Source of the DNA: Rhodococcus spelaei
GTDB taxonomy: Bacteria; Actinomycetota; Actinomycetes; Mycobacteriales; Mycobacteriaceae
Direction: 5' to 3'
NCBI RefSeq assembly: GCF_006704125.1
Contig: NZ_VIGH01000005.1
Span: 248,001-312,000, forward strand
DNA: 64,000 bases
A model generated the notes under the pieces. It had not been told where the DNA came from and did no database searches. It saw only the letters and a program-made list of their open reading frames with translations. Shown piece by piece: positions 34,258 through 64,000 of the stretch. The first letter of the stretch is position 1. The number at the start of each line of letters is the position of its first letter. Position numbers and translations under genes: made by a program.

Positions 34258-37200
34258 TTGAAGCCGACTGCGTTCGACGGACTCGACGGCACGAACCGCG
34301 TCACGCACGGTGACGCGAACGAGGCCTTCCCGCTCTCACATGCGCAGCTCGGCATGTGGTACGCCCAGCACGTCGACCCCGAAGTGCCGATCAACATCGC
34401 CCAGTACGTCGATCTCCGCGGTCCGCTGGACGTCGATCTCCTCGACGAGGCCAGCCTGACCGGTTCACGGGAGTTCGGCACCGGCTTCCTTCGCCTCGTC
34501 GAGGTCGACGGCACTCCGTACCAGGTCATCGACCTGTCCATCGAGGACCACGTCGGGTACGAGGACTTCCGCGGTCACGCGGACCCCGAGGCGGCCGCGC
34601 ACGAGTGGATGCGCGCCGAGTTCGGAGCCCCGCTCGACCTGCTCGAGGACCGCCTGATCTGCGCCACCCTGCTGCACATCGAGGACGAGCGGTACTTCTG
34701 GTACTCGCGGGTCCACCACATCGCGCTCGACGGCTTCGGCGCAATGGCGTACATGATGCGAGTGTCCGAGCTGTACTCGGCGCTGCTGGAGGGGCGGGAG
34801 CCCGCACCGTCGAAGGCCTGCAGTCTGCGCAGCCTGAACGAGGCAGACCTCGCCTACCGGGAGAGCTCCCGGTTCGCTTCCGACCGCGAGTACTGGGCCG
34901 AGCGGATCGCGGGCATGGAGGAGGGCAGCAGCCTAAGCGGACGCACGGCGCCGCCGGCCGTCGTCAACGGGGTGGCCAGCGCAGCACTGTCCGACGAAGC
35001 CAATGGTCTCCTGACTTCTGCTGTGGCAAAACATGATTCATCGCCCGCGGGCATGCTCATCGCGGCCTTCGCCGGATACCTGGCACAGTTGACGGACTCC
35101 GAGGACGTGATCCTGAGTCTCCCGGTCACCGCGCGCACCACCGCCCCGATGCGCCAGTCCGGCGGAATGCTCTCCAACGTGGTGCCGCTCCGGTTGCACG
35201 TCGGCGCGGACACCACGGTCGCCGACCTGCTCAAGTCCGTCCAGGTCGCGGTTGCCGGCGCACTGCGGCACCAGCGGTACCGGCACGAGGACATCCGTCG
35301 CGATGCGTCGTCGACCGCGATGGCGCGTGACCTGCTCGGACCCCTCGTCAACATCATGCTCTTCCACAACGAGATCACGCTCGGGCCGGTCCTCGGCGAG
35401 TTCAACATTTTGTCGACCGGCACCGTCGAGGACCTGGCGGTGAACTTCTACCAGAGTGTCGCCGGGACACGCACGCACGTCGACTTCGAGACCAATCCGA
35501 ATCTGTACACGCAGGACCAGGCGCACCAGCACCACTCCCGGTTCCTGGACTACTTCGAGCGCTTCCTCTCCGCCGGTGAGTCCGAGCAGGTGTGGCGGCT
35601 CGGCGCCGTCTCGGACGGCGAGTTGGCGACCCTGCTGACCGACTGGAACGACACGGCGCACGACGCGCTGGACGGCACGTTGGTGTCGGTGTTCGGGTCG
35701 CAGGTCGCCCGGACCCCGGATTCGGTCGCCCTGTCGTTCGACGGCGAGTCGTTGAGCTACTCGGAGTTCGACGAGCGGGTGAATCGTCTTGCACGGCATC
35801 TGATTTCGCTGGGAGTGGGTCCCGAGTCCCTGGTGGCTCTCGGGATGCGGCGATCGTTGGACCTGCTGGTCGGCGTGTACGCGGTGCTGGCGGCCGGCGG
35901 CGCCTACGTGCCGATCGACCCCGATCAGCCCGCCGAGCGGGTGGGGCACATTCTCGACACGGCCGCCCCGGCCTGCGTGCTGTCCACCTCGCGTGACGGA
36001 CTCGAGGTGCCGGGGGAGAGGTCTGTCCTGTTCGTGGACACCCTCGATCTGTCCGGCTATCCGTCCGCAGCGATCGCCGATGCGGAGCGGGTGTCCGGGC
36101 TGTCGGCGGACAACACGGCGTACGTCATCTTCACATCGGGCTCGACGGGTCGGCCGAAGGGCGTCGCCGTCAGTCACCGCGCGATCGTCAACCGGCTGGA
36201 CTGGATGCAGGCGGAGTACGAACTCGGCGTGGACGACGTCGTGTTGCAGAAGACGCCGGTGACGTTCGACGTGTCGGTGTGGGAGTTGTTCTGGCCGTTG
36301 CAGGTTGGTGCGCGACTGGCCATCGCGGTGCCTGACGGGCATCGTGACCCGGCGTATCTGGCGCAGGTGATGGCGGAGGAGTCCGTGACGACGGCGCACT
36401 TCGTGCCGTCGATGCTGGCGGTCTTCGCGGTGGAACCGACCGCGGCGCAGGCGTCGTCGCTGCGCCAGGTGTTCGCCTCGGGTGAGGCGCTGCCCGCGGA
36501 CACGGCTGCGCGCCTGCGCGAAGTGCTGCCACAGGTGCGGTTGCACAACCTGTACGGACCGACGGAAGCCGCGGTCGACGTCACGTTCCACGAGGTCACC
36601 GAGGCCGACACCGCCGCCGTGCCGATCGGCGCGCCGGTGTGGAACACCCAGGTGTTCGTGCTCGATTCTCGATTGCGGCCGGTGCCGGTCGGCGTCGAGG
36701 GCGAGTTGTACCTGGCCGGTGTTCAGTTGGCTCGCGGGTACGTCGGACGCAGTGACCTGACAGCGGACCGGTTCGTGGCGAACCCGTTCTCCGACACCGG
36801 TGAGCGGATGTACCGCACGGGCGACCTGGTGTCCTGGAACTCGTCCGGCGAGCTCGAGTACGTCGGGCGCACCGACTTCCAGGTGAAGCTGCGCGGTTTG
36901 CGAATCGAGCTCGGTGAGATCGAGACCGCGCTGCTCGGCCTCGCCGAGGTCGCGCAGTCCGTGGTGGTGGTGCGGTCCGATCCCCAGGCCGGCGAGCACT
37001 TGATCGCGTACGTGGTCCCCGCGCCGGGCGCCGTCGTGGAGCCAGACGAGGCCCGCGGCGCGGTGATGCGATCACTACCCGCGTACATGGTTCCCGCCGC
37101 AGTGGTGGTCCTCGAGCAGTTCCCGCTCAACGCCTCCGGCAAGCTCGACCGCAAGGCACTGCCGGTTCCGACGCTGGCGGCCAACCGCGACACTGTCTTC

Positions 37201-64000: not shown

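What the first reader, a model, noticed from the sequence alone, without database searches (positions are those of the whole stretch)
34258..64000. Giant NRPS with nine C-A-T modules and more beyond the window
One frame is open for over 9,900 codons, so the protein exceeds 1 MDa. All nine complete modules are plain C-A-T with no epimerase, methylase or thioesterase. That implies an all-L product so far, unless some C domains are dual-function, and ten or more residues. I do not recognise the product. Few described actinomycete peptides come from a single polypeptide of this size.
Basis: partly seen in the sequence, partly recalled or inferred. Interest (0 to 1): 0.82.

Follow-up and report, generated by a model that had tools for sequence, protein, structure and literature searches.

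The report
Giant ten-module lipopeptide synthetase gene
This is one very long gene for a ten-step assembly-line enzyme that probably joins a fatty acid to a ten-residue, all-L, serine/threonine-containing peptide; enzymes of this type and size are common in this bacterial family, so it is a new member of a known kind whose product is unknown.

Summary
The frame is open from GTG 34213 to the window's end and stops at window-equivalent 67032 (contig C14:282213-315032): 10,939 aa, 1.17 MDa, no internal stop. An MbtH gene follows 65 bp later. No epimerase is present. C2-C10 are LCL-like and lack the dual C/E His motif. C1 resembles solved starter condensation domains (RzmA, CDA), so the product is most likely an N-acylated all-L decapeptide. 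Only four of ten binding-pocket codes match published ones (Ser-x-Thr-Thr-x-x-x-Ser-x-x).

The size argument fails for this lineage. The same genome has three more giants (14,478, 9,182 and 9,005 aa), relatives carry homologues with 9 to 13 modules, and frames above 10,000 aa recur across the family. Assembly collapse is unlikely: modules are about 70-79% identical in DNA and no exact repeat reaches 127 nt. Ceniceros 2017 describes this class as dominant, mostly uncharacterised Rhodococcus lipopeptide synthetases. New member of a known kind. A side lead in relatives, a paired A-domain-like element at C|A subunit splits, may be of more interest.

The parts
34213..64000 (+). Giant NRPS gene (N1), GTG start, 10,939 aa in full; continues to window-equivalent 67032 (C14:315032)
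34276..35565 (+). C1, starter (lipo-initiating type) condensation domain, HHIALDG
35719..37401 (+). A1 (code DVWHFSLVDK, Ser) and T1 of module 1
37435..40605 (+). Module 2 C-A-T, A code DVYMMAAVLK (substrate unknown)
40630..43806 (+). Module 3 C-A-T, A code DFWNIGMVHK (Thr)
43834..47004 (+). Module 4 C-A-T, A code DFWNVGMVHK (Thr); 79% DNA identity with module 3 over about 3 kb
47032..50190 (+). Module 5 C-A-T, A code DLWHLILVSK (unknown)
50218..53361 (+). Module 6 C-A-T, A code DVYMAAGVLK (unknown)
53392..56559 (+). Module 7 C-A-T, A code DVWEIGTVGK (perhaps a basic residue; inference)
56587..59742 (+). Module 8 C-A-T, A code DVWHFSLVDK (Ser)
59770..62943 (+). Module 9 C-A-T, A code DVWDFILVSK (unknown)
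62971..64000 (+). Start of module 10 (C10 cut by the window end); A10 (DINVVGGVMK), T10 and the thioesterase lie beyond, to 67032; MbtH gene at window-equivalent 67098-67319

Best explanation
N1 is a complete, linear, single-chain lipopeptide synthetase. The starter C domain takes a fatty acyl group, probably from acyl-CoA because no FAAL or ACP was seen beside the gene, and puts it on Ser1. Nine LCL condensation domains then add nine more L-residues (Ser-x-Thr-Thr-x-x-x-Ser-x-x). The terminal thioesterase releases the acyl-decapeptide by hydrolysis or by macrolactonisation on a Ser, Thr or acyl hydroxyl. The adjacent MbtH protein supports the A domains. Shown by sequence: the frame, domain order, domain subtypes by similarity, thioesterase, MbtH and four codes. 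Inferred: lipidation, the all-L product, the acyl donor, the mode of release and that the gene is expressed.
For: Full frame and ten modules. C1 best matches the 7c1h/7c1k/7c1p entries and CDA-PSI C1 and groups with the first C of the other three giants at support 1.0. C2 ranks 5u89 and 7kvw far above SrfA-C (371 and 298 against 78 bits), whereas a C that follows an E in N2 shows the reverse order (SrfA-C 207, 5u89 83). No dual C/E motif in any of the giants. TE and MbtH. Ser and Thr codes are literature matches; the PheA numbering was checked against 1AMU. Two phosphopantetheinyl transferase candidates are in the genome. Homologues with the same all-C-A-T plan and starter C: G004 9 modules, G029 11, G001 13 in two subunits. 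An MbtH gene lies next to the homologous TE in all six relatives examined. Ceniceros 2017 (PMC5550956): 69 of 79 NRPS families in its 28 genomes bear lipopeptide hallmarks, often with a C-starter domain and Ser/Thr-rich predictions.
Against: No product is known. Six of ten codes have no published match found (four of them, modules 2, 5, 7 and 9, searched; modules 6 and 10 not searched). No acyl-activating gene or exporter is next to N1; the FadD5-type ligase with an mce operon and a DrrABC-like exporter lie beside the second giant, N2. LCL assignment by similarity cannot fully exclude epimerisation in trans or an atypical C domain, and only C2 was ranked against solved structures. C10 has HHIAGDA, a variant of HHxxxDG.
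Confidence: 0.82

Rival explanations
1. The frame is an assembly artefact: modules collapsed, duplicated or joined, so the true gene has a different length.
For: Modules 3 and 4 share about 79% DNA identity and some exact repeats exceed 100 nt; the genome is a draft of 18 contigs.
Against: No exact repeat reaches 127 nt, most listed module pairs are about 70-72% identical, codon-position GC is uniform, and homologues of 9 and 11 modules sit in single frames in other assemblies.
Confidence: 0.05
2. Some C domains are dual-function or an enzyme acts in trans, so the peptide contains D-residues.
For: Untested biochemically; D-residues are frequent in lipopeptides, and the other three giants carry 1 to 3 E domains.
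Against: No HH[ILV]xxxxGD motif; all N1 carrier domains are of the GGNSL type, against GGDSI before the E domains of N2-N4; C2-C10 fall with C domains that follow plain T domains, and C2 scores LCL-like.
Confidence: 0.1
3. N1 and N2 (C14:335532-378968, 12 modules, own starter C and own TE) form one joint cluster that makes a single larger product.
For: They lie 20 kb apart on one strand, and both are also near each other in G003 and G004.
Against: Each has its own starter C and its own TE, the genes between (acyl-CoA and aldehyde dehydrogenases, TetR, GntR, FadD5 and mce operon) look unrelated, and in G029 the matching thioesterases lie about 300 kb apart on contig C1.
Confidence: 0.05
4. The product is a siderophore rather than a membrane-active or antibiotic lipopeptide.
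For: The described NRPS clusters of Rhodococcus are mostly siderophores (PMC5550956).
Against: No catechol, hydroxamate or iron-transport genes were recognised beside N1.
Confidence: 0.08

Closest known systems
Rhodococcus putative lipopeptide NRPS gene-cluster families (Ceniceros et al. 2017, PMC5550956)
   Same: Large C-starter-initiated NRPS, Ser/Thr-rich prediction, unknown product, order Mycobacteriales (inferred)
Humimycin synthetases (IupU of R. equi and a homologue in R. erythropolis)
   Same: Starter C domain, large NRPS, MbtH in the cluster (PMC5550956)
   Different: Fewer modules (heptapeptides, from memory); sequence not compared here
Kolossin A synthetase of Photorhabdus (from memory)
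   Same: Single giant bacterial NRPS polypeptide
   Different: 15 modules and a D/L-pentadecapeptide, Gammaproteobacteria; N1 is smaller and has no E domain or dual C/E motif
Starter C domains of rhizomide synthetase (PDB 7c1h/7c1k/7c1p; identity from memory) and CDA-PSI (4jn3)
   Same: Best solved matches to C1, together with ObiF1
   Different: Different assembly lines; acyl specificity of N1 unknown

Membership tests
Modular type I NRPS | Repeated C-A-T modules with intact core motifs (HHxxxD, TSGSTGxPK, GGxS) | tested here: met
   ten of each; C10 is HHIAGDA
Modular type I NRPS | Terminal type I thioesterase | tested here: met
   PF00975, 110.5 bits, GWSLG
Modular type I NRPS | Phosphopantetheinyl transferase available | tested here: met
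   Two PF01648 matches in the genome; which one is Sfp-like was not tested
Lipopeptide synthetase (C-starter class) | First domain is a starter condensation domain | tested here: met
Lipopeptide synthetase (C-starter class) | Product carries an acyl chain | not testable with these tools
   needs chemistry
All-L product line | No E domain, no DCL domain, no dual C/E motif | tested here: met
Humimycin-type synthetase | Same module number and substrate order | tested here: inconclusive
   Ten modules counted, but the humimycin synthetase sequence was not compared
Match to a MIBiG entry | Known product cluster with matching architecture | not testable with these tools
   MIBiG and antiSMASH not available

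The most novel reading that the evidence does not exclude
N1 makes a so far undescribed all-L acyl-decapeptide. It belongs to a lineage-wide lipopeptide family in which module number (9 to 13) and subunit splitting vary while the Ser start, starter C, TE and MbtH stay fixed, giving a natural series for studying how assembly lines gain and lose modules.
Probability: 0.6. Interest if true: 0.45.

Novelty: new member of a known kind. Interest (0 to 1): 0.3.

Why it matters
The product is probably an undescribed lipopeptide with a simple all-L sequence, so it could be made by chemical synthesis from the prediction and tested, as was done for the humimycins (PMC5550956). The orthologue series shows differing module numbers and subunit splitting in one conserved assembly line. 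The size itself is normal for this family.

Tried and rejected
Literature searches for giant Rhodococcus NRPSs and for the unknown codes gave nothing direct. A joint N1-N2 cluster was considered and rejected. A functional link with the urease operon just upstream was judged unlikely: in G001 and G004 the gene block on the far side of the urease operon lies directly beside N1. Assembly collapse was considered and found unlikely. In the domain tree the E domains were not recovered as one clade and the after-T group has low support (0.377), so subtype assignment rests mainly on the structure rankings and motifs.

Full report
What is there. The frame that starts with GTG at 34213 is open to the end of the window. 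The window is C14:248001-312000 of a 4.8 Mb draft genome. Fetching the continuation shows that the frame stops at C14:315032, giving 10,939 aa (1.17 MDa) without an internal stop. Home-made profiles find ten C, ten A and ten T domains in strict C-A-T order. Nine modules are complete in the window; the tenth begins there. After T10 comes a type I thioesterase and, 65 bp after the stop codon, an MbtH gene. So the cluster core is one NRPS gene plus MbtH, one of only two MbtH genes found in the genome.

Initiation. C1 scores much lower with the general C profile than the other nine. Its best solved relatives are the 7c1h/7c1k/7c1p entries (starter domain of rhizomide synthetase, from memory), ObiF1 and CDA-PSI. 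In a tree it groups with the first C domains of the three other giants with support 1.0. The expected role is N-acylation of residue 1. No FAAL or ACP was seen beside N1, so an acyl-CoA donor is inferred.

Stereochemistry. No epimerase is present. C2 ranks 5u89 and 7kvw (LCL type, from general knowledge) at the top and SrfA-C at the bottom; the control, a C that follows an E domain in N2, ranks McyB, PvdL, SrfA-C and TycB high and 5u89 last. The dual C/E motif is absent, and all N1 carrier domains read GGNSL, whereas those before E domains in the other giants read GGDSI. An all-L peptide is the best reading. The tree agrees for the starter and after-E groups (support 1.0 and 0.998), but the E domains did not form one clade and the after-T group, which holds C2-C10, has support of only 0.377.

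Substrates. Codes were read on an alignment to PheA, whose numbering was checked against 1AMU. Modules 1 and 8 match the enterobactin Ser code exactly; modules 3 and 4 match Thr codes. The codes of modules 2, 5, 7 and 9 have no match in the library searched; modules 6 and 10 were not searched. Module 7 (DVWEIGTVGK) may take a basic residue, which is inference only.

Assembly. Within N1 the listed module pairs are mostly 70-72% identical in DNA, the closest (modules 3 and 4) 79%, and no exact repeat reaches 127 nt. Collapse is therefore unlikely.

Relatives. All five other genomes held of the genus have related thioesterases. G004 has a 9-module homologue in one frame, G029 from another genus an 11-module homologue (12,054 aa), and G001 a 13-module line on two polypeptides. 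An MbtH gene lies next to the homologous TE in all six relatives examined. Modules 1 to 5 keep a related pattern (Ser, DVY-type, Thr or related, Thr or DVY-type, DLWHL-type) in the three relatives whose start is held. Across 251 genomes of the family, 148 have a thioesterase match at E <= 1e-40, many in frames of 8,500-15,000 aa. The same genome has N2 (14,478 aa, 12 modules, 3 E), N3 (9,182 aa, 8 modules, 1 E) and N4 (9,005 aa, 7 modules, 2 E). Size is therefore not remarkable in this lineage.

Known context. Ceniceros et al. 2017 (PMC5550956) found 79 NRPS families in 28 genomes, mostly Rhodococcus, 69 with lipopeptide hallmarks, many with C-starter domains, Ser/Thr-rich predictions and mostly unknown products. 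N1 fits that class. Placement in Rhodococcus sensu lato is inference from gene content; no named close genome was returned.

Side lead. In G001 and G002 the homologue is split between C6 and A6 (numbered in G001), and the two ends carry homologous segments of about 100 aa (41% identity) that resemble the N-terminal part of an A domain (weak matches at the starts of true A domains) but hit no Pfam family. Matches to this element occur in 101 of 201 family genomes and 15 of 31 genera. In about forty of the listed genomes (counted by eye) a tail and a head lie next to each other, and in the three pairs opened (G003, G154, G014) the tail follows the last C of one frame and the head precedes the first A of the next; in G027 and G106 such segments sit between C and A inside one chain. 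They could be a homotypic docking element for C|A subunit splits. A review of docking domains (PMC9113145) does not mention such a thing in the passages searched. N1 itself lacks it.

Noticed in passing
L043:11207-11977 (G001), L069 (G003), L070 (G154), L071 (G014), L072 (G027), L075 (G106): Paired ~100-aa segments, homologous to each other and related to the A-domain N-terminus, end the upstream and begin the downstream subunit at C|A splits of NRPSs; internal copies sit between C and A in some very long chains. No Pfam match; 101 of 201 family genomes have a match. Possible homotypic docking element.
   Followed up: partly
C14:335532-378968 (window-equivalent 87532-130968; L013-L015): Second giant NRPS of 14,478 aa (1.55 MDa), 12 modules with 3 E domains and a TE, between a FadD5-mce operon and a DrrABC-like exporter plus the S10 ribosomal operon; conserved in G003 and G004, related frame in G029.
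   Followed up: partly
C18:165801-193349 (L017, L018) and C15:167973-194990 (L020, L021): Two further giant NRPSs of 9,182 and 9,005 aa; the second has an extra partial C-like stretch (aa 464-705) after its starter C.
   Followed up: no
window 25997-33494: Urease operon with a urea transporter and NicT nickel transporter lies between N1 and a TetR/acyl-CoA dehydrogenase block that directly adjoins N1 in G001 and G004, so it looks inserted or relocated (the urease genes themselves were named from their sequence starts only).
   Followed up: partly
N2 A11, N3 A2 and A4: Codes DLKNFGSDVK/DLKNVGSDVK; DLKNVGSDVK is mentioned in the Ser/Dha and homoserine section of PMC12283262, so homoserine-like residues are possible in those products.
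   Followed up: no
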